This document shows positions 7,284 through 22,675 of a stretch of 64,000 nucleotides of DNA, piece by piece (position 1 is the stretch's first letter; every line of letters starts with the position of its first letter). The stretch comes from Leptolyngbya sp. SIO1E4 (GTDB taxonomy: Bacteria; Cyanobacteriota; Cyanobacteriia; Phormidesmidales; Phormidesmidaceae), in contig JAAHFU020000004.1 of NCBI GenBank assembly GCA_010672825.2, positions 248,001-312,000 of the forward strand. Direction: 5' to 3'. The notes beneath the pieces were generated by a model. The model was given only the letters and a program-made list of their open reading frames with translations, was not told the DNA's origin and did not search any database. The translations under genes were made by a program, and so were the position numbers.

Positions 7284-9962
7284 TCACAACCAATTCCCAA
7301 CTAAGACGTAATTTGCCCAAATGTAGGGCGTTGTATAGCCATACTCATTCATCAGCGCGAGCTGTGCCTGCCGCACACTTTCCGCGATCGACCTATCCGA
7401 CTGGGATAGATTTTCGTAGAAGCGAATCATAAAGTCTGTGTTCGGGGTGTCTTGAGCGATCCACAAGGTTGATAACACACTACGCGTGCCGGTTCTGGTG
7501 GCCAGCCCGGCTAATCCTAAGACCGCACGATCATCCCCTTGGGCCGTTTCACAGGCGCTTAACACCACCAGTTCTAACGGACGCGCCCCATTTCGACTTC
7601 CGATCTGAATTAAATTATTGAGGTCTTGAGCCACAATTTGTTCGTTGTAGGCGACGATATAGGTCTCCTGGGGGTCAGAGCTAAAGACCCCGTGGGTTTT
7701 CCAATGAATGGCTGAAAAGTCGCCCCTTTGCAGCTGCTGACGAATATTGTCGGTCGTAAACGATTCATCCATGAGTGGCTCGCTCACGTCTACATATTGA
7801 GCGATGCCTTCAAGCTCTTCTCTCAGCTTGGCAATGGGTGGAAATTGCGTTTCATTGATGACTTGGGGAATTCCTATGCCGCCCATTTTGACCTTCAGCG
7901 CGGGACGGGTCGCTCTGGGGGCAAACATTTGTAGGCGCGGGGCGATCGCAACCGCATAGCCCTTTTCGATTAAATACTGGTTCCCATCGTGCAGCACAGA
8001 CATGGGAATATTGCGCATCGTCCCGTCTAAGACAAATATCAGCGTCTGCACCGAGGCCTGACTCAGCTCGGCCTCAATGGGGCGCAACACCCAGTCGTAA
8101 ACTTTCTGGGCATCTGCCAGCACCTCGGGGGTTCGCTGTGGTGCAGCTAAGTTTGTCTGTAGTGCCAATAGCGTGGCGTCTAGGGTCGCCTGCGGGACCA
8201 AGGTCTCATGATAGGTGAGGGGGGTCGCCGCCCCCGGTAGCTGCGCAACCATCGCCACGCGATCGCTCAAGACAATCGGATAAAGAATGGCCGCTTGAGG
8301 ATCCTGCACCTGATCAACGCGCTGTACCTGGGTCAAGGCACAGCCTAAATAATTTTCTATCTCGGCTAACTGCAGTTGATCGACGGTTTGAATCGCTTGT
8401 TCTAGCTGTGGGGGTTGGGGGTCAGCTGCCTGAGACGATGTCAATAACAGCTCGATATATTGCCGATAGACAGGTTCAACATCATCTCGAAATGAAAACT
8501 GAACCTCTGCATTCACGTTTAGCAGGTCGTTGCGAACCCGTTGCAGGCTATTGACAGCAGCCTCATAGGCGCGGATGGCCCCAGGTTGGTCGTGCTGTTT
8601 TTGCCGTAGCCTACCCAGTTGCCATTCCCAGCGATACTGCAGTTCAGGGGCTTGAATCGTCTCTAATGTGAATAGGGCCTGTTCTGTTAAAGATTGGGCC
8701 TCAGCCCACTGTTGGGTCTGTTCATACACACGGCCTAACTGGCCCAAAGCGTAGGACTCAGCCTGTTTATCTGCGAGGGTTTGGGCGTGTTTAAAGGCGG
8801 CCGACAGCCGTTCGGCAACCGCTAGGGGGTGCAACGCATCTGAGGGCAACGCGGCGCTGGCGGTCGCTTCATGGGCGGGGATGAGTTGGATGAGCTTGAG
8901 GACACTCTCCGCCAGGTGAATGTTGGCATAGACAGTGGTGCGGCTGGGGGGCAGTGGGTCAATGGCCTGCTGCACGGTGGGCACTGCCTGGATGGCTGCC
9001 GTCCATTCCCCCTGATCGATCCAGAATCGGAGCAAATTTAACCGCGCCGACAATACATTGTCGGTGTCAATCGCTTGCTGATAGGCGGTGAGGGCGGCTT
9101 GCAAATGTGGCTGGGCTTCGGCCTGTTGCCCAATGGCCATCAGCCGATTGGCTATGGCCCATTCGGTATTGCCCAACTCCAAGAAGATCAAACCGGTGCT
9201 GTCGGGGTGAGGGGTTAACGATAGGCTGTTTTGCAGGAGGCTGCGAGCAGTGTCTAACTCGCCTATTTGCCGCAGTACGCCGCTCAGATGGCGCAGTCCA
9301 GTGGCCTTAAGTGCCATGTCTGGCTGTTGCTGCAGGGTTTGGTATACCTGTTGCAAGACGGTTTGGGCCTGACTGTTGAACCCTAAATGTTGCAACACCC
9401 TGGCCTGGTTGATTTGGGCGATCGCGACCCCGGCGGTATCCCCCGCTTGGTGATAGGCCTGCTCTGAGCGTTGCCACACCGCGAGGGCGGCTTCTACGTT
9501 GCCTTCTAACCAGTGCAGCTTGCCTTGGGTGTTCAAGACTTTTGCGTAAATCGCCATCTGCTCTGGCGTACCCGCCCCTGCCTCTACAGGTTCTATGGTG
9601 TGTAGGCTTTCAGTTAAGCGGTGCTCGGCCTGCCCTAACTCTCCTAGCTGTTGATGGGCTAAAGACTGGTAGCTTAGGGCTAAAGCCTGCCCCCAGCGAT
9701 CGCTTTGAGCGGTAAAGCCCTGATGAGCCTGCTGCCACTGTTGAAGGGCTGCTTGAAACTGGTCGGCTTCATAATGGGCCATGCCCTGCCTCAGTAAGGC
9801 TTGAGGGGTCTCAGCTGCGGCTACCGTTACTACCGTTAGGGCGCTGGTGACCCCAGGCAGCAACGGCAACCCAGCAGGAATGGCCACTGCCATCGCAAAG
9901 CTGAGGCAGCCCAGCAGCATCCACCGCACCAGGCCTTGCCAGCCCCCCTTCAACGCCAGCAT
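7284..9962 (-). CDS. Exported TPR-CHAT domain protease
   Basis: 892 residues. An N-terminal hydrophobic signal or anchor (about 12-50, ending near VTVAAAETPQ) suggests export. TPR-like helical pairs fill about 50-530. The C-terminal CHAT domain (caspase HetF associated with TPRs) shows the dyad His757 in HWKTHGVF and Cys804 in LSACETAQGDDRAVLGLAG, ending in the usual YIWANYVLVGNW. CHAT domains are caspase-like cysteine peptidases. The start overlaps the end of the TPS gene by 13 bp, so the two are probably translationally coupled. The genomic pairing suggests the TPS protein or an envelope protein as substrate; this is inference. Confidence 0.9.
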   Translation of the reverse strand: MLALKGGWQGLVRWMLLGCLSFAMAVAIPAGLPLLPGVTSALTVVTVAAAETPQALLRQGMAHYEADQFQAALQQWQQAHQGFTAQSDRWGQALALSYQSLAHQQLGELGQAEHRLTESLHTIEPVEAGAGTPEQMAIYAKVLNTQGKLHWLEGNVEAALAVWQRSEQAYHQAGDTAGVAIAQINQARVLQHLGFNSQAQTVLQQVYQTLQQQPDMALKATGLRHLSGVLRQIGELDTARSLLQNSLSLTPHPDSTGLIFLELGNTEWAIANRLMAIGQQAEAQPHLQAALTAYQQAIDTDNVLSARLNLLRFWIDQGEWTAAIQAVPTVQQAIDPLPPSRTTVYANIHLAESVLKLIQLIPAHEATASAALPSDALHPLAVAERLSAAFKHAQTLADKQAESYALGQLGRVYEQTQQWAEAQSLTEQALFTLETIQAPELQYRWEWQLGRLRQKQHDQPGAIRAYEAAVNSLQRVRNDLLNVNAEVQFSFRDDVEPVYRQYIELLLTSSQAADPQPPQLEQAIQTVDQLQLAEIENYLGCALTQVQRVDQVQDPQAAILYPIVLSDRVAMVAQLPGAATPLTYHETLVPQATLDATLLALQTNLAAPQRTPEVLADAQKVYDWVLRPIEAELSQASVQTLIFVLDGTMRNIPMSVLHDGNQYLIEKGYAVAIAPRLQMFAPRATRPALKVKMGGIGIPQVINETQFPPIAKLREELEGIAQYVDVSEPLMDESFTTDNIRQQLQRGDFSAIHWKTHGVFSSDPQETYIVAYNEQIVAQDLNNLIQIGSRNGARPLELVVLSACETAQGDDRAVLGLAGLATRTGTRSVLSTLWIAQDTPNTDFMIRFYENLSQSDRSIAESVRQAQLALMNEYGYTTPYIWANYVLVGNWL

Positions 9963-12900
9963 CGGCGGTGAGCCGCCTCATCATTTGGGGTAGCCGTGAG
10001 GACGATATCACCGGTATCACTCACAACCCATCCCTGGGCTTCTGTAATCGGTGCTGCATCCGGCACCGATTCAGGCAAGCGCAGATCCTCTAAGACGTCA
10101 TCGCTGCCGAGAACCTCTTCTGCCAGCGGGATGATTCCCCCACGCCCAGAGGTGTAAAACTCTCCCGGTGACGAGGCGTTTGCACCGGCCTGCTCACAGC
10201 CTTGCGCCAGCATTTGAGAGGCGTCTAAAAGCCCGGAGGGTAAAGCGACCAACCCCTGGTCAGGGTCAAGGTTGAGGGTGTTGATTTGAATGGTGCCGTC
10301 TACCCCTAACTCAGAACTGGCCCGAATGTCGCTGAATGCCGTGGGCTGAGCGCGGGGTTCGAGGCCAAAGACCCCTTGAGCCGTGATCTCAATATTGCCC
10401 CCTTGCCCCTCAAACGCATCGGCAACAATATCACTATCTTCTGTGGGGATGGCCACCACAAAGCCCTCTGACGCATCGATGGTAATATTGCCGCCATCAC
10501 CGCCTGCCTGGGCCAGCCCTGCTGTGGCTGAGATCAGACTACCGTTGCGCAACAGCAGTGCGTCTTGCAGGGTTAGCCTAATATTGCCCCCCTGATTTCT
10601 GGCCGTTGTTGCCGTGATCGTCGCACCGTTATTGAGGCTTAGAACATCTGCCGCTAGCTGAATGTTGCCGCCAACCCCAGTGCCTTGACTATTCGCTTCG
10701 ATAGTGGCGCCGTCTTCGAGGCTGATTTGCCGGGGGCCAGTAATGCGAATGTTGCCCCCGTCTCCGGTTGCCTCAGGGGCTTCTGTTCCGGCAAAGATGC
10801 CGGTTGTTGCGCCAGAGAGGGTCGCGCGATCGCGGATTTCTAGCTCAATATTGCCAGCATCAGAGCGGCCCTCGGTGGTCGTAAAGAGAAACCCCGCCCC
10901 GCGCATATCGAACTGGTTAGTCCTGATCATAATATTCCCCGATTCTCCCCCCGCCTCTCCCAGGGACGAGGCGCTGAACTGGGTCGCCTCACCGAGAGAA
11001 AACGTCTGGCTATTGACCGTAATATCGCCTCCCCGCCCTGGGGCGGAGGTCTCCGCTGATAGCCGGGCCCCATTCGATAAGGAGAAATCGCGAGTCGTAA
11101 TCTCGATATTGCCCCCATCCCCTGCGGAGCCCGGCAAGGCGTTGGTAGATATCGAACTCCGACCAAAGGCGGTGTTTCCATCCACGGCGATCGCCTCCGT
11201 GAGATTGAGCGTGATGTTACCTGCGGCACCGCTGCCCAACAAATCAGTGATGGCGGCTAGCCGAGCCCCATTCGTTAACGCCAAGGTTTGGCCGGTAATC
11301 TGAATATCTCCCCCCTTGCCGTCACGGGCCGTCGTGAAGACACCTGTTCGTCTGATCTGCCCTGCCTGGGTACTCACCCCATCAAACACGACTTCGTCAG
11401 CGGCAATGAAGACATCACCCGCGTCGCCCGTCCCAAACGAGGCGGTCAAAAAACTTGCCCCGTCGGCCACCCTCAGTTGAGGGGTGGTGATTGAGATATT
11501 GCCCGCATCTCCCTGTGACCCCGGAACCGCATTGCTAAACAAACTGGATGGGCCACTACCGTCTTGGCTGACCCCCTCTAAGGTGACCGACTCTGTGGCT
11601 GTTATGGTGATATCGCCAGCCGCGCCTGCGTTCAGAGCAAACGACGAGGCGTTGCCGCCCCCTACCATTTGCAGCCTGCGGGTCGTCAGGGTGACATCAC
11701 CGCTAGACCCGGTGGCTGCTTCATCGGAGACAGTAAAGAGTGAGCTGCCATCAAGGCTCACGGTATCGCGGGCCTGAATCACTATCGGGCTGCCTTCTCG
11801 CACCCCGGTTGTATAGGCCACAACGAATACTTCCTCCCCGAGTAATCGAACCGAGTCTGCTGATAACGTGATGCTTCCGCGTCTAGGTGAGGGGGTTGTT
11901 GCAGCACTGTTGCTGCTAATCACGCTGCTGCCTGTAGCTGAAATGGTCCCTCCACTTTGCAACAGAATATCGCCTCCGGAGAAGCCATTTGCCAAAATAC
12001 TCGATCCCTCCGTGAAGAGAATGTCACCCTGGGCTAAGAGGGCTACATTCCCCGCATTGGTCAAGGTTGCCGATGACGTAATACCACTCTCCATAAAAAT
12101 GTTGTTGCGGGCATCTAAAATAACGCTGCCCCCCTGGGTGTCAAAGCCTTGCACATCAATCCCATCGCCAAAGGCCCCAGCACCCGTGACAGTGATATCT
12201 CCCCCTGCCAGTGCGGGATTGGGTTGATATTGATTGGTGAGCAGCACTAACCCATTGGCAGCCGGGATAAAGACGTCTCCCACTGTGATATCGGCGCGGG
12301 TGGCCGGGGCTGTTAGGGTGGGGCCTTCTAAAAAAATATCTGTGCCGGCGTCAACGCCGGTAATGCCGATGACTCCGATCGCCTCAGGGCTGACCCCAGC
12401 ACGGATGTCTAGGGTGGGTTGGGCGCTGCCATCAATGGCAACGGCTGCTCCATTAGAGAGCTGAACCGTGTCTTGCAAGAACCCCTCGGTCGGGGCTCCG
12501 ACTTCGGGCTGGGTAATGGTGAGGGTGCCGATGTTAACTGAGCCCCCGGCCAAAATATGTAAAGAACTGCCGATGTACGCGTTAAAAGCAACATCCCCTA
12601 GGGTGCGGATCACTGGGTCATAGGGGCTAGCCAGGTTTCCTAGAGCCCCCGCCAGGGTTGTAACCTGAAAGTTGCCTCCACTCCAGTACTGGGCATCGCC
12701 TATGACTGGGGTTTCGCTTTGCAACTGCATATCTCCCCCCGAGAGCAGCCCGCTCTCGGGATGATTGAGAGCAAAGATATCAAGGGTCTGGGTCCCTTGC
12801 ACCAGCAGCTGGTCGTGCGCTGCGATCACTAGCGGCTGACTGCCGCTGTCGCGCAATCGCACGCTGTCGGTGCCAACCAGGCTCAGATTTCCGCCCGCGT

Positions 12901-13528
12901 GGAGCTGCCCTTGGATGTCTAATTGACCTGCGGTGAGGGTCAGGTCTTGGCCCACCGCTAAGATCCCTCGATTGATCAGGGTCGTTTGGCTGGCGGCGGC
13001 GCCTTGATTGCTGCCAAGCTGTAGCCCTGGATTGAGGGTGACGGTGAGCAGCGGCGGTGCCTCTGGCTCTGTGGCGCTAAATGTGGAGCCCTCTGCAAAG
13101 ATCAGGCTATCGGCTGTGCTCGCCGTGAATGAACCGCGAATATCGAGCTGGGCATTGGGGCCAAAAACAATGCCATTGGGATTGAGCAGAAACAAATTTG
13201 CGGTGCCGTTGGTGCGCAGCAGACCATCGATATCAGACACGGAGTCGCCCGTGACGCGACTGAAGATATTCTCGATGCTAATCGAGTTGTTGAAAACAGC
13301 TTCGCCCCCTGTAGGTACCGAGAACTCAGTAAAGCTGTGAAACAGGTTGCCACCTTGCTGGGTGCCGCCTTCAACGGTGCAAAGGGTGCAGCCCGGTGCA
13401 ACGCTGGAGGGGGTCGGCAGGGTATTGTCAGGGATGATTTGGGCGGGGGTGAGGGGGGCGATCGCAAGACTCCCGATAGCGGCCAGCCCAACCGTGGCTC
13501 CAGTCGCCCACCAGCGTGTCTGTTCCAT
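9950..13528 (-). CDS. Filamentous haemagglutinin-type TPS exoprotein (TpsA-like)
   Basis: About 1,190 residues. ATG 13528 (MEQTRWW) is preferred because GTGAGGGT lies about 8 bp upstream; the frame remains open to 13552. A signal peptide ends near PLTPAQIIPD. The N-terminal TPS domain carries the NPNGIVFGPNAQLD motif and FHSFTEFSVPTGGEAVFNN. The rest is a repetitive beta-helix with recurring GNI-x-ITA/T and TLSNGARLSAxT units. It would be secreted to the cell surface by a TpsB Omp85-type pore, but no TpsB gene is in the window. It lies between a membrane-protein gene (about 33 bp upstream) and the CHAT gene (13-bp overlap). Confidence 0.9.
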   Translation of the reverse strand: MEQTRWWATGATVGLAAIGSLAIAPLTPAQIIPDNTLPTPSSVAPGCTLCTVEGGTQQGGNLFHSFTEFSVPTGGEAVFNNSISIENIFSRVTGDSVSDIDGLLRTNGTANLFLLNPNGIVFGPNAQLDIRGSFTASTADSLIFAEGSTFSATEPEAPPLLTVTLNPGLQLGSNQGAAASQTTLINRGILAVGQDLTLTAGQLDIQGQLHAGGNLSLVGTDSVRLRDSGSQPLVIAAHDQLLVQGTQTLDIFALNHPESGLLSGGDMQLQSETPVIGDAQYWSGGNFQVTTLAGALGNLASPYDPVIRTLGDVAFNAYIGSSLHILAGGSVNIGTLTITQPEVGAPTEGFLQDTVQLSNGAAVAIDGSAQPTLDIRAGVSPEAIGVIGITGVDAGTDIFLEGPTLTAPATRADITVGDVFIPAANGLVLLTNQYQPNPALAGGDITVTGAGAFGDGIDVQGFDTQGGSVILDARNNIFMESGITSSATLTNAGNVALLAQGDILFTEGSSILANGFSGGDILLQSGGTISATGSSVISSNSAATTPSPRRGSITLSADSVRLLGEEVFVVAYTTGVREGSPIVIQARDTVSLDGSSLFTVSDEAATGSSGDVTLTTRRLQMVGGGNASSFALNAGAAGDITITATESVTLEGVSQDGSGPSSLFSNAVPGSQGDAGNISITTPQLRVADGASFLTASFGTGDAGDVFIAADEVVFDGVSTQAGQIRRTGVFTTARDGKGGDIQITGQTLALTNGARLAAITDLLGSGAAGNITLNLTEAIAVDGNTAFGRSSISTNALPGSAGDGGNIEITTRDFSLSNGARLSAETSAPGRGGDITVNSQTFSLGEATQFSASSLGEAGGESGNIMIRTNQFDMRGAGFLFTTTEGRSDAGNIELEIRDRATLSGATTGIFAGTEAPEATGDGGNIRITGPRQISLEDGATIEANSQGTGVGGNIQLAADVLSLNNGATITATTARNQGGNIRLTLQDALLLRNGSLISATAGLAQAGGDGGNITIDASEGFVVAIPTEDSDIVADAFEGQGGNIEITAQGVFGLEPRAQPTAFSDIRASSELGVDGTIQINTLNLDPDQGLVALPSGLLDASQMLAQGCEQAGANASSPGEFYTSGRGGIIPLAEEVLGSDDVLEDLRLPESVPDAAPITEAQGWVVSDTGDIVLTATPNDEAAHRRCWR

Positions 13529-13561
13529 CGATTCAACCCTCACTGTGTACACCCACGATGC

Positions 13562-14407
13562 TTAATCCGCAAACCCTGACCCCAGGAGAACCCAAAGGAG
13601 AATATTGCTGACTATCCACGCTGTCCCGATGCCGCTGCTCAGGGTCACCACGGTTTGGGTGGCGCGATTTGCCCGCTGCCGCAGCAACAGAACTGCGATC
13701 AGCGTGACACCAATCCCCACAACCATTGCCCCTTGATTCACTACCCGATCCCAAGTCTCAGATGTAAACCCATAGGGGGTGACGGCAGCGTACGGCACGC
13801 TAGCTAGCGTAATCCAAGCCCACTGATAGAGGATTAATCCCCAGACGAGGCTGGCTAACCCTTTGGTTAACCAATGCGGATGCCGCCAGGCAAAGTAGGC
13901 CGCTATCACACCCGCAACCAGAGACAGCCCACTGCTGATGTTGATCAGACGTGATTCGCCCAAGGTTAGCAGGGTTTGAATTCCCCAGTATTTTTGCTGC
14001 ACCGCTTGCAACTGTTGCGGGCTCAATGCCAGGCCGGTAACCTCAAACGCCTCTGAGGTTATCGGTGCATAGTGGAACCCTTTACTGAGGCAGCTAATCG
14101 ATTGCCCATTGTATTGAGCCTGACACTGGCTTGGCCCAAAGTCAGTCATAGTTTCTAAAACCAGCACTAATGACTGGCCTTGAATGTCTGCCTGACACTC
14201 AGACCGCTGTCCGGTTTCTGTACAGTTGAAGATGCGATTAGGCAGGGCAATCGTTGTATCGGAGCCAGCGTTGATATAAACCCCGGCAAATGGCACATCT
14301 ATTCCCCCGCCTCGGGCTTCAAACACCAACAAAAATAGAAAAGAGCTAAATAATATAATCCATAGACCAAGCAAAAATCTTGTTAGGAAAATGCGCAAGC
14401 GACGCAT
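13562..14407 (-). CDS. Four-TM membrane protein of unknown function
   Basis: 281 residues. TM1 at about 8-30, an extracytoplasmic Cys-containing domain of about 125 residues (Cys in NCTETG, SECQAD, PSQCQAQ and ISCLSKG, potentially two disulphides), then three or more TM helices (ISSGLSLVAGVIAAYFAW, LASLVWGLILYQWAWITL, GAMVVGIGVTLIAVLLL). Not assigned to a named family. First gene of the apparent operon with the TPS and CHAT genes, so it may anchor or monitor that system. Confidence 0.7.
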   Translation of the reverse strand: MRRLRIFLTRFLLGLWIILFSSFLFLLVFEARGGGIDVPFAGVYINAGSDTTIALPNRIFNCTETGQRSECQADIQGQSLVLVLETMTDFGPSQCQAQYNGQSISCLSKGFHYAPITSEAFEVTGLALSPQQLQAVQQKYWGIQTLLTLGESRLINISSGLSLVAGVIAAYFAWRHPHWLTKGLASLVWGLILYQWAWITLASVPYAAVTPYGFTSETWDRVVNQGAMVVGIGVTLIAVLLLRQRANRATQTVVTLSSGIGTAWIVSNILLWVLLGSGFAD

Positions 14408-15004
14408 CGCGTCTAACCTCCATCGAGTTAATTTGTTTTAGAGATGTCTCAGAGATCTTTCAAGATGAAAACTGATGCACTAGACGAGCCTTCAAGGGGG
14501 AGTGCAAGATTCCCCAGGTAGCGCTACCCTTCTGATTCGCTCAGGTGAATTCATGGGTCAGAAGACGGTCCTTTTCTCTTGAGAACATAGACACCCTGCC
14601 TTTAGCCAGGAAGGAAAAAGCGATCGCGATTGCTCGTATGTAACTGTTTGAACTGCCTGACTCCTGAGTTCTTCAAACGTAACAATCCATGGGATTATCG
14701 TGATCCAGTTTATGTAATCTTCAAATTAATTTCTATTGCCCTGTAACACTCTGTTGGATGATGATTAAGCCGTCGTGTTTAGCGACAGATCGGTAAAAAG
14801 ATCTCAAAAAAACAACCCTGAAATTCTGTCAATAGCCTCATCTCTTCACGGAGGTTTACATTGTGAAGACAGGAGAAGATTGCCTTGTCTTTAATCTGGT
14901 TGATTCAAGGGGGGAAGGTCTCTCGGCGTGCTCCAAGCAATCACGTGGCGCGGGATGATTGTTATTGGCACTCTTCCCAAACGGCTATGGGAATAGCCAA
15001 TTGG
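14408..15004. other. 597-bp intergenic region upstream of the TPS operon
   Basis: Contains no convincing ORF. Probably holds the promoter of the minus-strand operon starting at 14407. Its right end contains the palindrome listed at 14990. Confidence 0.4.
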
Positions 15005-15011
15005 CTATTCC
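14990..15011. promoter_or_regulatory. 22-bp perfect palindrome at the end of the DUF928 gene
   Basis: Left half GGAATAGCCAA (14990-15000) and right half TTGGCTATTCC (15001-15011) are exact complements and overlap the stop codon of the DUF928 gene. As RNA it could form a 9-bp stem with an AATT loop, but no T-tract follows. It is either a weak terminator or processing hairpin, or a protein-binding site. Confidence 0.5.
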
Positions 15012-15769
15012 TCCTCTTCTAGGGGCAAAACAGGTCCCAAAAATTGAGCGTCTCCGACAGATTCTGCCTCAATCAGCTGCAGTAGTTCCTGCCATTGAGC
15101 GGATAGCTGACTCTCTTGGGGAGAGGCTTGTAGGCGATCTGCAACGCTTGCCAGGGCGTCGTACCAAATCTCTGGAGACCCTGCCTGGATTTGTTGTGCC
15201 CGTTCGGGTGTCAGGGCCACTCGCTGCATTGCGCCATGCAGGGTCAGGTCAGGTTGGGTGTCTTCATCGTCTTCACAGTGCAGCTGAAAATACCAGCGAT
15301 AGATTTGGTCTTCTGCCAGCGCATACTCCGGCACCTCAGGTAGGGTGATACTGACGATCCCGGGGGACGCGGGTAGGGTGAAGCGAGTTTCATAATGGCG
15401 GATTTCTTCATCGGGCCAAAGCAGCAGAGAAAACTCACCGTATTGAACATCTTCAGCACCCGCGGGAATGTAAAACAAAACCGTAGGATAGGCGCGGGTG
15501 GTCAAGACAGGATTTTCGGCGGGAATCAGTGCCCGTAAGCCATCGTTGAGAGGACTGCACAAAGACTCATCAGGGTTGAGCCCGCCCCCCGGTCGGGTGC
15601 CATTTGGAGGGGGGGCATTGGGGGGAGGCGGGGGTGCTTGGGTGGTTCCTGCCATGGGCGTGCGGGCAGGGGCGTTTTGAGGAAGCCATAGAAGGGATAG
15701 CACCAGACTGCTGGCTAACGTACCTGCGATCGCAATGGGTAGCTTCTGAAGGGTCATTCTGAATTCCAA
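15005..15769 (-). CDS. DUF928 family exported protein
   Basis: 254 residues (MTLQKL at 15757 is an alternative start). A signal peptide, a Pro/Gly-rich linker, then the DUF928 core: LCSPLNDGLRALIPAENPVLTTRAYPTVLFYIP, EIRHYETRFTLPASPGIVSITLP and YRWYFQLHC. The last 25 residues are acidic. DUF928 proteins are predicted periplasmic beta-rich proteins regularly found beside CHASE2, DUF1822 and TPS genes in cyanobacteria. Function unknown. Confidence 0.88.
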   Translation of the reverse strand: MEFRMTLQKLPIAIAGTLASSLVLSLLWLPQNAPARTPMAGTTQAPPPPPNAPPPNGTRPGGGLNPDESLCSPLNDGLRALIPAENPVLTTRAYPTVLFYIPAGAEDVQYGEFSLLLWPDEEIRHYETRFTLPASPGIVSITLPEVPEYALAEDQIYRWYFQLHCEDDEDTQPDLTLHGAMQRVALTPERAQQIQAGSPEIWYDALASVADRLQASPQESQLSAQWQELLQLIEAESVGDAQFLGPVLPLEEEE

Positions 15770-16059
15770 AGGGGCGACAGGTTAGACAGAGAATTTCCCA
15801 AAGATCACTTTGCCTAAGTTCTTCCCTAGTCAGCATTAGCCTTTCATCAGAAAGAACTTGGGAAGATGCCTCACAGTAGCTCGCTCCTGCTGTTTATACA
15901 CATCTTTCACGATCCGCGTCAAAAGGTTGCATTTGCCCCCTTTGTTCCCAAAGTTGAGGGAACCTGCGCTTGCAGTCTCCCAGAATGGGGGGATTGAGAA
16001 GGCAATGCACTGAAATGGAATGGGAAGTGACTGATGTATACGCTGCAGCAGTTGCTTGT

Positions 16060-18564
16060 TCAGAGGCGATGCTTGGAACTTCTTCTCAAGACTACAAACC
16101 CGCCGGTCAGCAATACGGATAATCCTGTCGGGATTAATGGTAGCCAGAGTCCTTGGCTTAAGGCGACTAAACACAGGTAAGAGAGGCCCCAAGTCATTGC
16201 GACTAAGGTCAGAATTGCCCCCAGCCGCCATCCCAGCCGCAGCCCTAACCGGCGCGATCGAAGTCTGCGCGTGTGCACCCAATGGCTAACGCCGCCACTG
16301 AGTAGCGACCCCCCTAAGATCCACCCTGCATCTCCCCATTGAAAACTTCGCCACTGGGGTAACACCTTGATCAAGGGCCGTTGGTCGAGCACCGCACTTA
16401 ATAGCTGACTCACCATATGCGCATGGAGCCAAACCCCCGCCATTTTGCCATAGGGGGTATCTAGGGTATCTCGGGCAACTGGGGCAGTGTACCCCACCAA
16501 GACGAGTCGGTCTTGCACCCTATCAGCACTGATTTGCCCTGCGAGCACCTCTTGTAAAGATACCTGCTGACCGGGCTGGGCGGCCCGATAGTTCAGCATG
16601 AGCTGAGTGCTCAAACCATTGAGCGTTTGATATCCGCCGAATCGGCGAGTGAGGGGCTGAAAAACCACAGAGCCAAACTGCCACTGGTCATTCTCGGTGA
16701 CCGTGAGGGGCTCAATTTCTGCCTGATGCAGATATCGATAGACAAGTTGAAGGCTCAGACTGTAGGGCGTTGAGCAGCGTGACTGGGTTGAGGCCAGATC
16801 GGGGTTATATGACAGCAAGTGACGACGAACGACTCCCCCTGGCTGGGCCGCCTGCTGAGGTACTACCGTGGTGACATTACGATGCTGTCCCAGCATCTGG
16901 GTAGGCTTGTCTAAAATAACGTTACTAAACCCGACCTGTTCTATGCGCTGATTATCTGAAAACTCGACAGGGGGGTCATAGTCTTGAGCGATCTGATCAA
17001 AGGCACACACCGTAAACAGATTTGAATGCTGCTGAAAGTGGTTGAGTAATGGCTGACGCCCTGCTCCCCTGGGGCGATGGCGATGCATGTCGAGGGCAAT
17101 GGCGGTAGGTCGCAAGGCTTGGAGAACCTCGACCGTTTCTGCGAGAACGGCATCGGCTAACGGATAGCCCCCCAACGCATCCAAATCAGTTTGAGTGACT
17201 TCTACGATCAAGATGCGCGAGTCAACTGTCTCGGCTGGGCGCGATCGCATCAGGTAATCATAGGCGGCCAGCTCAACTGGCTGCAGTATCCCCAGCAGCC
17301 GCAGGGCTACGATCACCCCCGTCACGATGATACTGATCCAGAGCCTGCGAAACCCTGGGAAGGGGGATGTACTAGAAGCCCTGGCTGGGGTGGCTGGGGC
17401 GATCGGTTTTGCCCCCCTTAGCTGGGGTCTTGACTGAGGTGTTGGCTGAGGTGCTGGCTGAGGTGCTTGAGCCGGTTGCCCCTGCAGGGTTTGCCAGTTG
17501 GGGGGCGCCACGAGCGGATTTTGGTAAATGACCGGCAACCAACTGGCACAGGGAAACTGATGTTCTAACCCTTGCAGTCTTTCTCGGGCTTGACGAACGC
17601 ACAGATAGAGCGCCTCACCGGTGGCAAACACTTCTAAAAAATACTTTAAAAACGCCTCGGCTACCTGGTCAGCGACAGGCTCTCGCATCACAATCATCTG
17701 CGGGATGCCCAGGTGTTCGAGGGCGGGCGCCAGCCCTAAGCCATCACAGGAGTTAAAGATCGCCAGCTGTAAGCCCTGGTCAATGGCCCGGCGCAACCCA
17801 AAGCGCAGCTCTGAGAGCGACAAACTGTCAGTCTCGTTGATAAAGATGCGTCCCTGACTACGGTGGGTTTCGCTATGCCCGGCAAAGAATAAAATATCCC
17901 ACGGCGTTTCCCACAGCTGATCGTTAAGCTGCGGCAGATCGGGCTCCACTAAAAATGACACCTGAGCCTGGGGTAACTGAGCCAACACCTGGCGATCTGC
18001 CGCAACATTGATGCCGTGACTGTGCCCTAAAATTGCCAGGATTCTAACCGGATGAGGAGACCCCGGCTGCATTTTGGGCTGTACTGATTCGTATTCAGGG
18101 GTGCTGAGTGCGACTTCTGCATAGGGATAGCGCTCAAAAAAATCCCACTCGTGCCAGGGCAACTTTTGGAGATTGAAATCTTGGGTGCGGATCAAAAAGC
18201 GAATCACCTCATGGCGGCTGAGTTCTTCCCGCAGGCGGCGATCAATCGGCTGAAACGATTCGGCATTCAGCCAGGCCCGAAAGCGATCGCGCAGCGCCTG
18301 GGCCGAGCGTTGACAATCTGCCAGACGCTGACTAATGGAGCCTTTGTGGATGATTTTTTGGCCTTTAATGCGGAGTGGAACGCCCAGAGGCCGATAGACC
18401 CCATGCCAATGGTGGCTGAGTTGGGCTGCGATTGCAGGAGACGGCGGTAAAAAGCCTTTCACCTTTAGGGCTGGGAAGTCATTTTCAGCCCGAATTTCCA
18501 AGGTTGCCCGAAATCCGGTGAGGTTAAAATCCCCCTCTAATTCCAGGATGACCCACTTATCCAT
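16060..18564 (-). CDS. CHAT-CHASE2 membrane sensor protease
   Basis: 834 residues. The N-terminal part holds an alpha/beta region and then a CHAT-like peptidase domain with His230 (FFAGHSETH) and Cys273 (IFNSCDGLGLA). A Pro/Gln-rich linker (about 365-400) leads to a TM helix (LWISIIVTGVIVALRLL), then a CHASE2 extracytoplasmic sensor domain (AAYDYLMRSRPAETVDSRILIVEVTQTDLDALGGYPL and VLVGYTAPVARDTLDTPYG) and C-terminal TM helices. This implies an outside sensor controlling an inside caspase-like peptidase. The upstream DUF1822 gene is 35 bp away, so the two are co-transcribed. Confidence 0.9.
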   Translation of the reverse strand: MDKWVILELEGDFNLTGFRATLEIRAENDFPALKVKGFLPPSPAIAAQLSHHWHGVYRPLGVPLRIKGQKIIHKGSISQRLADCQRSAQALRDRFRAWLNAESFQPIDRRLREELSRHEVIRFLIRTQDFNLQKLPWHEWDFFERYPYAEVALSTPEYESVQPKMQPGSPHPVRILAILGHSHGINVAADRQVLAQLPQAQVSFLVEPDLPQLNDQLWETPWDILFFAGHSETHRSQGRIFINETDSLSLSELRFGLRRAIDQGLQLAIFNSCDGLGLAPALEHLGIPQMIVMREPVADQVAEAFLKYFLEVFATGEALYLCVRQARERLQGLEHQFPCASWLPVIYQNPLVAPPNWQTLQGQPAQAPQPAPQPTPQSRPQLRGAKPIAPATPARASSTSPFPGFRRLWISIIVTGVIVALRLLGILQPVELAAYDYLMRSRPAETVDSRILIVEVTQTDLDALGGYPLADAVLAETVEVLQALRPTAIALDMHRHRPRGAGRQPLLNHFQQHSNLFTVCAFDQIAQDYDPPVEFSDNQRIEQVGFSNVILDKPTQMLGQHRNVTTVVPQQAAQPGGVVRRHLLSYNPDLASTQSRCSTPYSLSLQLVYRYLHQAEIEPLTVTENDQWQFGSVVFQPLTRRFGGYQTLNGLSTQLMLNYRAAQPGQQVSLQEVLAGQISADRVQDRLVLVGYTAPVARDTLDTPYGKMAGVWLHAHMVSQLLSAVLDQRPLIKVLPQWRSFQWGDAGWILGGSLLSGGVSHWVHTRRLRSRRLGLRLGWRLGAILTLVAMTWGLSYLCLVALSQGLWLPLIPTGLSVLLTGGFVVLRRSSKHRL

Positions 18565-18599
18565 CCGTGCACTCCTCAGCAGACGTTCTGCGGTGGTGG

Positions 18600-19565
18600 C
18601 TATATCTCAAACCGCTCCGTCACGGTGAACTGATTAAACGTGATCTGCACACTAAATCGTTCACCGGCTCCACCACTAAAGTGAAATTCTAACCCTTCAC
18701 TCTGACGTCCCTCGGCTTGTAAAACCGGTGTGTTGGCTTCATCCATGACGACCATCTGTAACGTCGCTGGCAAATAGGCCTGATTCCCCGCTGGATAAAC
18801 CTCCACAGTGATATTAAACGCCGATTGCTTCTGGGCGGGCATAATGCCAACGATGAATAAAACCCGCTCTTCAGAGACTTTGCTCAGGGTTAAAAATTTG
18901 CCCTGCTTAACCCCGGCGGTTGCTGGCTCAATCAAGCCAGTTTTGGCGGCTGGGGTTCTAAAACTGAAGGCGCGATCTTGCCCTTGCCACTCTGCTATCA
19001 GCTTATCTAAGTTGGTCCAGCTGGCATCCACGATCTGGGCCAGCCAGTGCTGTAACGTCACTCTGGGCGCCGACGATACGCTTAAACAATGGCGCAGCTG
19101 CTCTAGATATTCTGGAAAAGTCTCTAATGACTGCAGCTGCCCCAGAGGAACGCTCGCCGCTTCAGGCTGAGGGAGAAACCCGAGTAAGGTCGCTTCTGTG
19201 AGTGCGGGGTCAACTTGGACAAACAGATACCCAATGCGATCAGCCCACGCCTCTGATGGGATGTCTACCGTAGACGAGTCTGGGAGCACTGGGCGACATT
19301 CTAAACGGCCCAGGTTGCCTACCCAGAGGTCAGCCGTATCGGCTAAAACCTGTAACGTTGGGTTCCAGCTTTCACTTTTTTCTAAAGAGGTTTCGATCCC
19401 TAAACAGGTTAGGTAAAACTGTGCTGCCTGCACGCTAAGCGTGTTCAAGTAGACCCGCTTCCTCTTTTGGGGTTCACTGTGGTGGTGGTAAAACCCCTGA
19501 GCAGCTTGATGAAAAGCGTCTGTAAGAGGCACCCTAAATGTGGTCTGGTCGCGTTTGACAGTCAT
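18600..19565 (-). CDS. DUF1822 family protein
   Basis: 321 residues. Hallmarks of DUF1822: an N-terminal FHQAAQGFYHHHSEPQKRKRVYLNTLSVQAAQFYL stretch, DIPSEAWADRIGYLFVQVD, and a central LQSLETFPEYLEQLRH. No TM segment. Always seen in cyanobacteria next to sigma-like and CHASE2/CHAT genes, but its biochemical role is unknown. It follows the sigma-like gene by 29 bp and precedes the CHASE2 gene by 35 bp. Confidence 0.9.
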   Translation of the reverse strand: MTVKRDQTTFRVPLTDAFHQAAQGFYHHHSEPQKRKRVYLNTLSVQAAQFYLTCLGIETSLEKSESWNPTLQVLADTADLWVGNLGRLECRPVLPDSSTVDIPSEAWADRIGYLFVQVDPALTEATLLGFLPQPEAASVPLGQLQSLETFPEYLEQLRHCLSVSSAPRVTLQHWLAQIVDASWTNLDKLIAEWQGQDRAFSFRTPAAKTGLIEPATAGVKQGKFLTLSKVSEERVLFIVGIMPAQKQSAFNITVEVYPAGNQAYLPATLQMVVMDEANTPVLQAEGRQSEGLEFHFSGGAGERFSVQITFNQFTVTERFEI

Positions 19566-19594
19566 TGTCTTTAGAGAAAGTGGGTTGGTTGCAT

Positions 19595-20242
19595 TTAGAC
19601 AGACACATATTCTTTGAGTATGGGGGCAAACTTAATCAAGCATCTTTGATAAAAGGAGCTAAGGGTAACGACTTTAACATCAACTTCAGCGGAGATCTCT
19701 TTCCAGGAATAGCCCCCTAAAAAACGCAAGGCAAGGTACTGAAAGTTAGCTTCGGGTTTTTGCAGGATATGGGTGCCTTTAAATAGGCCGTCACGATCAT
19801 CTTGAATGCACTGAATTACGGCCTCTGAGAGGGATATCGTAGCGTGCGATCGCGCCTCTATCGGCTCTTGTTTGTCGAGGGCATCGAGCGTAATTCGTTT
19901 AACTTGCGATCGATCCATCCCTTTAGGGGCCGTTGGCATCACATCTCGACTTGCCTCAACGAAGAATCGCTTTTTCATCAAAAAATTTGCCCATTGCAAC
20001 ACCTCTAACTCCGGGTTATATCGATCAATTTTCTCGCATAAATATAGAAACAATCGCTGCTGAGCCTCGGCATAAATGTCTTCATAAAATCCATGAAACT
20101 GACCTTGATAGGGGCGCACCAACTGCTTAGATCGACAAATCGTGCCAACCAATTGAGCCAAGGCTTGCTGCCGCCGGGGAGTTCTCGGGGGATGCTGTTG
20201 AGCTGCCACAGCCAGTTGCTTGAGCTGTTCGTCTAAGGTCAT
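19595..20242 (-). CDS. ECF-like sigma-70 family regulator
   Basis: 215 residues. The N-terminal half resembles a sigma region 2 (YEDIYAEAQQRLFLYLCEKIDRYNPELEVLQWANFLMKKRFFVEASRD), the C-terminal half a region 4 helix-turn-helix (YLALRFLGGYSWKEISAEVDVKVVTLSSFYQRCLIKF). This atypical cyanobacterial sigma-like protein typically leads DUF1822/CHASE2 clusters, and here is the first gene of the minus-strand block. It likely directs transcription of the block; this is inferred from position. Confidence 0.8.
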   Translation of the reverse strand: MTLDEQLKQLAVAAQQHPPRTPRRQQALAQLVGTICRSKQLVRPYQGQFHGFYEDIYAEAQQRLFLYLCEKIDRYNPELEVLQWANFLMKKRFFVEASRDVMPTAPKGMDRSQVKRITLDALDKQEPIEARSHATISLSEAVIQCIQDDRDGLFKGTHILQKPEANFQYLALRFLGGYSWKEISAEVDVKVVTLSSFYQRCLIKFAPILKEYVSV

Positions 20243-21907: not shown

Positions 21908-22675
21908 TTAATTGGAAGAATCTGACATATCTAATTTTGCCTGCCCGCAATGGACAAGGTAGTTTAATTCACTCTCTAGCCACTCACTAAAAAGGCTATC
22001 TAATATTTGTGTCTGAATTTCAGGTGTTAACTGTGGGGAAACAAAGTCCTCAACCATCCATATTTCATACCCCTCCCCTGCCTTAAGAACACCAATGACG
22101 TCGCGCGGGTTAGCGCCAAAAATTTTTGCCGACAATTCAGCGTCAATCTGCCACCGAGATAATTTTCCTTCAAACCCACATGCAAGGCGCCTACTTTCAT
22201 CAACATCATAGAGATGGGCTGCTTTAAAGAAGCTAATTTCTTCTTCTTCAATTTGATAAAAAATTTCTTGTGCTAGAGGTTTGTAGGGAACAACGATTCG
22301 ATAGAGAACAGCTTGCTCATACTGAATTCTATTTTGGGCAAAGTAAGTTTCTATCTGTTTTCCAAATAGATGTTGGGCTAATTTTTGTGATAGCAAGCGA
22401 TCGTAGATGCCTTGTTCCCAATCGTCTGGCGTGATCAGTTGATCCTCTAGCCAAGTGTAGGTTTGAGATGCATTTTCTAGCTTATTCTGATATCTAAACT
22501 GGTCTGCTTCAGACTGAATCTCTTCCGGAGAGACATCAATGCCATACTCCTTGGCAGCCTGAACAACAATCAACTTCTGTAGGATCTGCTGCTGAACGCT
22601 CTTAATTTTCATCTCATGCTTGAGATGCTCTACAACTTTCTCAGGATTAATGACAGAATCCGTTAGCCGAACCAT
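21908..22675 (-). CDS. Parvulin/SurA-like peptidyl-prolyl isomerase
   Basis: 255 residues without a signal peptide. The N-terminal helical SurA_N-like region (IKSVQQQILQKLIVVQAAKEYGIDVSPEEIQSEADQFRYQ) precedes a rotamase-like domain (VPYKPLAQEIFYQIEEEEISFFKAAHLYDVDESRRLACGFEGKLSRWQIDAELSAKIFGANPRDVIGVLKAGEGYEIWMVE). Such cytosolic parvulin-like proteins commonly accompany HlyD/C39-ABC exporters in cyanobacterial bacteriocin clusters, likely holding or presenting precursors; this role is inferred. Last gene of the minus-strand cluster. Confidence 0.8.
   Translation of the reverse strand: MVRLTDSVINPEKVVEHLKHEMKIKSVQQQILQKLIVVQAAKEYGIDVSPEEIQSEADQFRYQNKLENASQTYTWLEDQLITPDDWEQGIYDRLLSQKLAQHLFGKQIETYFAQNRIQYEQAVLYRIVVPYKPLAQEIFYQIEEEEISFFKAAHLYDVDESRRLACGFEGKLSRWQIDAELSAKIFGANPRDVIGVLKAGEGYEIWMVEDFVSPQLTPEIQTQILDSLFSEWLESELNYLVHCGQAKLDMSDSSN

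What the first reader, a model, noticed from the sequence alone, without database searches (positions are those of the whole stretch)
7284..20242. Sigma-like / DUF1822 / CHAT-CHASE2 / DUF928 / membrane / TPS / CHAT block without TpsB
Two CHAT proteases, one cytosolic-facing with an outside CHASE2 sensor and one exported with TPRs, are co-encoded with a large TPS exoprotein whose start overlaps the exported protease gene. The recurrent cyanobacterial gene set suggests one conserved surface-protease system. The missing TpsB indicates use of a pore encoded elsewhere or a broken system.
Basis: partly seen in the sequence, partly recalled or inferred. Interest (0 to 1): 0.6.

Follow-up and report, generated by a model that had tools for sequence, protein, structure and literature searches.

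The report
Cyanobacterial caspase-linked surface-protein release cassette
A cyanobacterial gene block pairs a known caspase-type membrane sensor with a large surface protein and an exported caspase-like protease, and the surface protein ends in a conserved two-cysteine tail that the protease may cut to release it.

Summary
The block is real: seven minus-strand genes (sigma-like, DUF1822, CHAT-CHASE2, DUF928, membrane, TPS, TPR-CHAT), with both CHAT dyads intact. One detail is wrong: it is the TPS gene's 3' end that overlaps the protease start, by 13 nt. The sigma/DUF1822/CHAT-CHASE2 core is published (EACC2-caspase systems, Kaur 2021). Beyond that I find four things. DUF928 directly follows CHAT-CHASE2 in 114 of 134 homologues. 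TPS lies in 29 of 60 fetched loci (2.2 expected) and TPR-CHAT in 32 of 60 (2.8 expected). TPS-CHAT single-chain fusions occur in three architectures. The TPS proteins carry a C-terminal module not in Pfam or NCBIfam: a cysteine pair (43 of 49) bracketing a GRGG-like motif (42), in an otherwise nearly cysteine-free chain. The missing TpsB is normal: 55 genomes hold 663 TPS and 227 TpsB. Best explanation: a sensor-to-caspase relay linked to a surface adhesin held by an HMW1/CdrA-type cysteine hook, with the exported CHAT protease playing LapG's role. Conservation and linkage are shown; cleavage, release and sigma control are inferred. No shared promoter motif, modules without nearby CHAT, and fusions without the module count against parts of this.

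The parts
19595..20242 (-). sigma-like (ECF-type) gene, 215 aa
   Evidence: weak sigma-70 r4_2 / TIGR02937 matches, below cut-offs; of 27 homologues 8 match r4_2 and 4 match r2 at E<=0.01
18600..19565 (-). DUF1822 protein, 321 aa, no export signal
   Evidence: PF08852 1.4e-57; directly upstream of CHAT-CHASE2 in 101 of 134 homologues; model pLDDT 88, Ig-like C-terminal half, no clear PDB match
16060..18564 (-). EACC2-like N-terminus + CHAT + TM + CHASE2 + TMs, 834 aa; dyad His230 (17875-17877) and Cys273 (17746-17748)
   Evidence: homologues at E<=1e-30 in 245 of 388 class genomes
15005..15769 (-). DUF928, exported, 254 aa (ATG start at 15757 gives 250 aa); predicted FN3/Ig-like sandwich plus helices
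   Evidence: PF06051 4.7e-37; directly downstream of CHAT-CHASE2 in 114 of 134; model pLDDT 82, Foldseek/VIA matches weak
13562..14407 (-). 281-aa protein with N-terminal and C-terminal hydrophobic segments; accessory
   Evidence: no Pfam/NCBIfam match; homologues in 33 of 388 genomes; hydrophobic segments
9950..13552 (-). TpsA-type exoprotein, 1200 aa
   Evidence: PF05860 3.6e-55, TIGR01901 2.5e-25
9950..10297 (-). C-terminal module of the exoprotein: Cys1119 (10196-10198), GRGG with Arg1137 (10142-10144), Cys1198 (9959-9961)
   Evidence: no Pfam or NCBIfam family; 216 of 388 class genomes
7284..9962 (-). exported TPR-CHAT protease, 892 aa; dyad His757 (7692-7694) and Cys804 (7551-7553); ATG overlaps the TPS 3' end by 13 nt
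   Evidence: member of a 50-sequence, largely TPS-linked CHAT clade, support 0.909

Best explanation
Two linked halves. (1) Sensor half (a known kind): a CHASE2 receptor outside the inner membrane, probably helped by the exported DUF928 protein, controls a cytosolic EACC2-CHAT caspase-like protease that acts on DUF1822 and/or the sigma-like protein and so changes transcription. (2) Surface half: a TpsA exoprotein goes out N-terminus first through a TpsB supplied in trans, and its C-terminal module stays in the periplasm, closed by a disulfide between two conserved cysteines (the HMW1/CdrA hook). The exported TPR-CHAT protease, translated from the same message, cleaves that tail, perhaps at the conserved GRGG between the cysteines, and lets the adhesin go. 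It works like LapG-CdrA but with a caspase-family enzyme. Shown: gene conservation and linkage, catalytic dyads, cysteine pair and motif, fusions. Inferred: periplasmic location, the disulfide, cleavage, release, and control of half 2 by half 1.
For: Module in non-fused complete TPS: Cys pair in 43 of 49; 97 Cys in 6,860 residues of the last 140 aa against 13 in 39,058 passenger residues; GRGG-like motif between the Cys in 42, with Arg in 37 of the 43 pair-bearing proteins. CHAT-TPS link: 14 of 15 own-genome TPS within 10 kb of a CHAT (same-contig null mean 3.0, 0 of 20,000 reach it); TPS>CHAT order in 16 of 19 adjacent same-strand pairs, most within 70 nt or overlapping; one-ORF fusions in three architectures, one (L013, 2657 aa) placing TPR-CHAT exactly behind the module; one CHAT clade holds eight own TPS-linked CHATs and none of the own unlinked ones in L009-L012. 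Export: hydrophobic N-terminus in 34 of 41 clade TPR-CHATs against 2 of 143 EACC2-CHATs. In trans TpsB. Interchangeable intracellular output beside DUF928/TPS/CHAT in the same genome: CHASE2-histidine kinase (L013), 3xTIR-CHASE2 (L014), response regulator + CHASE2 (L004/L005, L007). Precedents read: HMW1/HxuA disulfide anchor, CdrA tail cut by periplasmic LapG, CdrA cysteine hook.
Against: 20 of 60 loci have neither TPS nor TPR-CHAT in the stretch fetched. No shared promoter-like dyad upstream of sigma, DUF928, TPS or CHAT genes, so sigma control of half 2 has no support. 11 of 43 hook-bearing TPS have no CHAT in their stretch, and some genomes have more modules than CHATs (e.g. G020 at least 11 modules, 9 CHAT). 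8 of the 9 complete fusions lack the module, and L017 has an adjacent CHAT without it, so CHAT is not dedicated to the hook. The Arg of GRGG is not universal (38 of 49). Other own TPS-linked CHATs (L015 fusions, L017, L003:527) fall outside the main clade. Having CHAT does not discriminate module-bearing genomes: 21 of 21 with the module and 15 of 17 without it have CHAT.
Confidence: 0.42

Rival explanations
1. The block is mainly a conflict or programmed-death device as proposed for EACC2 systems: the sensor caspase activates itself and triggers an immune or death response; the surface genes are passengers or the outward arm of that response.
For: Architecture matches the published EACC2-caspase/DUF1822/ECF systems; a 3xTIR-CHASE2 protein replaces CHAT-CHASE2 at a sister locus; Anabaena phage-resistance mutants include one in an FHA-N-domain gene and one carrying a CHAT-gene mutation, not shown to be linked.
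Against: No PADLOC defence model beyond a generic TPR match; DUF928 and TPS linkage are not part of that proposal; sister loci use kinase/response-regulator outputs, which looks like ordinary signalling.
Confidence: 0.25
2. The exported CHAT is the payload: TPS proteins carry or display CHAT outside the cell as an exoenzyme or toxin against neighbours, as the fusions suggest.
For: Three TPS-CHAT fusion architectures with C-terminal CHAT, a place where other TPS toxins carry their effector (recalled for CdiA).
Against: Most CHATs are separate proteins with their own signal-peptide-like start and no TPS domain, so they could not use TpsB by themselves. Whether a small immunity-like partner gene recurs was not tested (my maps leave out ORFs under 110-150 aa).
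Confidence: 0.2
3. Loose neighbourhood effect: signalling modules and surface genes accumulate in the same variable regions without acting together.
For: Optional and rearranged order; many loci without TPS/CHAT; 13 CHAT matches cluster elsewhere at C4 726-794 kb.
Against: 13-fold excess of TPS over density expectation, tight TPS>CHAT junctions, recurrent fusions.
Confidence: 0.1
4. The locus is decaying because its TpsB was lost.
For: No TpsB in the block.
Against: All ORFs open, dyads intact, TpsB present in every one of 55 genomes examined and fewer than TPS in 50; only 6 of 60 homologous loci have a local TpsB.
Confidence: 0.03

Closest known systems
EACC2-caspase systems (Kaur et al. 2021, PMC8195603)
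   Same: N-terminal alpha+beta domain + caspase/CHAT + variable C-terminus (CHASE2 among those named), with ECF sigma and DUF1822 genes (section 9 read)
   Different: DUF928, TPS and exported TPR-CHAT are not mentioned in the section read; DUF928 has 0 occurrences in that paper
CdrA-LapG adhesin release (P. aeruginosa; PMC5422565, PMC11898600, passages)
   Same: TPS adhesin with a C-terminal cysteine hook, periplasmic protease cutting near the C-terminus
   Different: Protease here is CHAT; the sensor is CHASE2-linked; cleavage not shown
HMW1/HxuA C-terminal disulfide anchor (PMC5422565, PMC8151025, passages)
   Same: Cysteines at the TpsA C-terminus, in a part that stays periplasmic in the precedents
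   Different: Here the cysteines are mostly about 75-115 residues apart, with a conserved GRGG and a second conserved block (EAQGW...G.V.L.A) between
FHA-SphB1 maturation (PMC5422565, passages)
   Same: Proteolytic maturation frees a TpsA from the surface
   Different: Subtilisin autotransporter, unlinked to the TPS genes; here the protease gene overlaps tpsA
HetF (Anabaena; PMC8406250, PMC12288457, passages)
   Same: Cyanobacterial membrane CHAT protease regulating a cellular decision by cleavage (PatU3)
   Different: HetF equivalog score 22.4 against cut-off 1200
CHASE2/DUF928/WD40 cluster of Nostoc (PMC5587647, one passage)
   Same: CHASE2 gene beside DUF928 noted
   Different: No CHAT or TPS noted; called lineage-specific, whereas the pair is widespread here

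Membership tests
EACC2-caspase systems | caspase-fold domain with His/Cys dyad behind a conserved N-terminal domain | tested here: met
   His230/Cys273 invariant in 33 of 33; conserved N-terminal 110-aa profile in 143 proteins
EACC2-caspase systems | N-terminal domain is EACC2 itself | tested here: inconclusive
   no published EACC2 profile at hand; assigned by position and partner genes
EACC2-caspase systems | variable C-terminus such as CHASE2 | tested here: met
   PF05226 2.5e-56
EACC2-caspase systems | neighbouring DUF1822 and ECF sigma genes | tested here: met
   DUF1822 in 106 of 134 loci, sigma-like profiles in 94 of 134; sigma identity weak
Two-partner secretion exoprotein (TpsA) | TPS domain after an export signal | tested here: met
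Two-partner secretion exoprotein (TpsA) | a TpsB partner in the genome | tested here: met
   8 good ShlB matches plus 1 weak in the own genome, none in the block
HMW1/CdrA cysteine-hook TpsA | C-terminal cysteine pair | tested here: met
   Cys1119/Cys1198; 43 of 49 relatives
HMW1/CdrA cysteine-hook TpsA | disulfide and periplasmic retention | not testable with these tools
   needs biochemistry
LapG-CdrA release system | protease of the LapG family | tested here: not met
   the linked protease is CHAT; no other protease family above cut-off in its Pfam scan
LapG-CdrA release system | cleavage of the adhesin tail | not testable with these tools
   none
HetF | equivalog NF045509 score over 1200 | tested here: not met
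   22.4 bits
Craspase TPR-CHAT (Csx29) | sequence kinship to the solved TPR-CHAT | tested here: not met
   no PDB sequence match at E<=0.001 by single-sequence search

The most novel reading that the evidence does not exclude
Cyanobacteria run a caspase-based counterpart of LapG-CdrA: CHASE2 with DUF928 senses the outside, a cytosolic caspase (or, at sister loci, a kinase or TIR output) relays it, and an exported caspase-family CHAT protease cuts an undescribed cysteine-hook module (C...GRGG...C) found at the end of two-partner exoproteins in more than half of the cyanobacterial genomes examined, releasing the adhesin and remodelling sheath or biofilm.
Probability: 0.28. Interest if true: 0.8.

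Novelty: new variant of a known kind. Interest (0 to 1): 0.56.

Why it matters
CHAT proteases are abundant in cyanobacteria (49 matches in this genome) and few have a known substrate. This gives a concrete candidate substrate and cut region for one clade, gives the orphan family DUF928 a setting (the partner gene of CHASE2 receptors), explains why TpsA genes lack local TpsB, and describes a C-terminal exoprotein module absent from Pfam and NCBIfam. If right, bacterial caspase relatives would do extracellular-matrix work, not only death or immunity.

Tried and rejected
Broken-system reading: rejected. GRGG as a strict mark of CHAT linkage: rejected, since module and nearby CHAT do not track (pair with CHAT in the stretch 32, pair without 11, no pair with CHAT 4, neither 2). 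Shared promoter for the sigma-like protein: none found by dyad counting against shuffles; the generic sigma-70 scan gave 8 sites against 9.0 expected. Genome-level dependence of the module on CHAT: not discriminating. Function from structure: DUF928 and DUF1822 models gave no PDB match at E<=0.001 and best VIA Z of 7.4 and 7.8, within the range the tool calls a common arrangement; no function claimed. PDB sequence searches for TPR-CHAT, CHAT-CHASE2 and TPS gave nothing. Craspase and HetF membership: rejected. PADLOC: only a generic TPR match. Literature: no held paper has 'CHAT domain' with 'two-partner secretion' and 'cyanobacteria' (0) or with 'filamentous hemagglutinin' (0); some searches were seen as listings, with PMC8195603, PMC8406250 and PMC10811720 opened for passages or a section; the spelling 'haemagglutinin' was not searched, and most subscription papers are not held.
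Full report
OBSERVATION. The seven minus-strand genes are present as described, except that it is the 3' end of the TPS gene that overlaps the TPR-CHAT start (13 nt), not its start. Both CHAT dyads are intact and conserved. The window is C4:248001-312000 of an unnamed 8.2-Mb genome. The nearest named homologous block is in a Leptolyngbyaceae MAG (L140, 69% identity). G347, in the same family, has a contig of the same length as one listed for Adonisia turfae CCMR0081, so I infer it is that organism.

CONSERVATION. The CHAT-CHASE2 protein has relatives (E<=1e-30) in 245 of 388 class genomes. I fetched 60 loci from the high-scoring places listed there (with L031); partial matches, tiny contigs and some second matches in a genome were skipped. 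In these 60, DUF928 is present in 57, DUF1822 in 51, the short sigma-like protein in 35, TPR-CHAT in 32, TPS in 29, at least one of the last two in 40, both in 21, TpsB in 6. With 78 named loci added (partly the same genomes), 134 distinct genes have DUF1822 directly upstream in 101 and DUF928 directly downstream in 114. Against each genome's own density, 2.24 loci with TPS and 2.8 with CHAT would be expected among 60. CHAT counts per genome there are floors where only 35 candidates were scored, so 2.8 is slightly low, and loci share ancestry, so the P values of about 1e-26 and 1e-27 overstate certainty; the effect is large regardless. The 281-aa membrane gene is an accessory (33 of 388).

PRIOR ART. 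Kaur et al. 2021 (PMC8195603, section 9 read) described EACC2-caspase proteins with variable C-termini including CHASE2, with neighbouring ECF sigma and DUF1822 genes, and proposed autoprotease signalling. That covers the first three genes. Their section does not mention DUF928, TPS or exported CHAT, and DUF928 has no occurrence in the paper. One paper notes CHASE2 beside DUF928 in a single Nostoc (PMC5587647, passage).

THE SURFACE HALF. The genome has 15 TPS, 49 CHAT, 6 DUF1822, 9 DUF928 genes and 8 good TpsB matches. 14 of 15 TPS lie within 10 kb of a CHAT (measured from the TPS domain; same-contig null mean 3.0). Three are one ORF with CHAT (L013, L015 twice). Elsewhere the fusions come as TPS-...-TPR-CHAT (L101, L104, L107, L109; L167 cut short by unknown bases) and TPS-...-CHAT (L110, L123). 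Eight TPS-linked CHATs of the own genome (window, L001, L004, L005, L006, L008, L013, L014) sit in one clade of 50 (support 0.909) without the unlinked ones of L009-L012; the own L015 fusions and the CHATs of L017 and L003:527 lie outside, as do two of the three fusion types, so the link seems to have arisen more than once. Where TPS and CHAT are adjacent on one strand, TPS comes first in 16 of 19, mostly within 70 nt or overlapping.

THE C-TERMINAL MODULE. In 49 distinct complete non-fused TPS proteins of 500 aa or more, 43 have one Cys 60-140 residues from the end and one within the last 16; the last 140 residues hold 97 Cys in 6,860, the passenger 13 in 39,058. A GRGG-like motif lies between the cysteines in 42; Arg is present in 38 of all 49 and in 37 of the 43 with the pair. 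The alignment also shows a second conserved block, (I)VEAQGW...G.V.L.A. Neither Pfam nor NCBIfam knows the module. It occurs in 216 of 388 class genomes (at most 11 candidates scored per genome, so per-genome counts are floors). Six of 49 lack the GRGG-like motif (L006, L016, L017, L108, L137, L201). In the L013 fusion the module stands immediately before TPR-CHAT; the other eight complete fusions lack it.

MISSING TpsB. In the 55 genomes behind the 60 loci, TPS 663, TpsB 227; TPS exceeds TpsB in 50, equals it in 4, is fewer in 1; every genome has TpsB. Use in trans looks like the rule.

SENSOR HALF. CHAT-CHASE2 has no N-terminal signal; hydrophobic segments flank CHASE2, so CHAT is predicted cytosolic and CHASE2 outside. 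In the own genome 7 of 9 DUF928 genes neighbour a CHASE2 gene, whose protein carries CHAT (window, L001), a histidine kinase (L013), three TIRs (L014) or an unassigned C-terminus, in two cases with a response regulator gene beside it (L004/L005, L007) and in one without (L020). I read this as a constant receptor and surface output with a swapped intracellular relay. Sigma identity is weak: 8 of 27 members match region 4_2 and 4 region 2 at E<=0.01; a longer protein in the same slot at L001 has region 4 above cut-off. A search for a promoter motif shared by sigma, DUF928, TPS and CHAT genes found nothing clear above shuffles. The two predicted structures gave folds (DUF928: FN3/Ig-like sandwich with helices; DUF1822: C-terminal Ig-like half) but no function.

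MECHANISM. The nearest working precedents are TpsA proteins held by a C-terminal disulfide loop (HMW1, HxuA) and CdrA, whose C-terminal tail is cut by periplasmic LapG; CdrA is thought to hang on CdrB by a cysteine hook (PMC5422565, PMC8151025, PMC11898600, passages). The present proteins have the hook residues, a conserved motif inside the loop, and an exported cysteine protease encoded with them. I therefore favour release by CHAT cleavage (0.42 overall). Results against: hook-bearing TPS without a nearby CHAT, fusions without the hook, the variable Arg, and the lack of any sign that the sensor half regulates the surface half. By function it may be LapG-CdrA-like; by family it is not (the protease is CHAT).

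VERDICT. A real, widespread association; the sensor half already known, the DUF928/TPS/TPR-CHAT extension and the hook module apparently new within the searches named.

Noticed in passing
L014:14526-17690 (own genome C1): A 1054-aa protein with three TIR domains and CHASE2 stands where CHAT-CHASE2 stands in the window, beside DUF928, TPS, TpsB and TPR-CHAT.
   Followed up: partly
G378:C38:19269-24470: TPS and ShlB matches are both reported with a 1805-aa open frame about 4 kb apart, apparently a TpsA-TpsB fusion.
   Followed up: no
own genome C4:726000-794000 (L009-L012): Cluster of 13 CHAT matches not linked to TPS, with three DUF1822 genes and two CHAT-CHASE2-like proteins of 819 aa.
   Followed up: no
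window 21908-22675 (-): SurA/PPIC-type protein whose best NCBIfam match is TIGR04500, a putative peptide maturation system protein (E 1.7e-17, below cut-off).
   Followed up: no
window 13562-14407: The 281-aa membrane protein has two more matches in the own genome (C2:948070, C12:288) and homologues in 33 of 388 genomes; unknown function.
   Followed up: partly
L085:12361-13134: A response regulator with a LuxR-type HTH lies between DUF928 and TPS in a homologous block.
   Followed up: no
literature, PMC10811720: Anabaena phage-resistant mutants include one in an FHA-N-terminal-domain protein and one carrying a CHAT-gene (all2170) mutation (passages).
   Followed up: no
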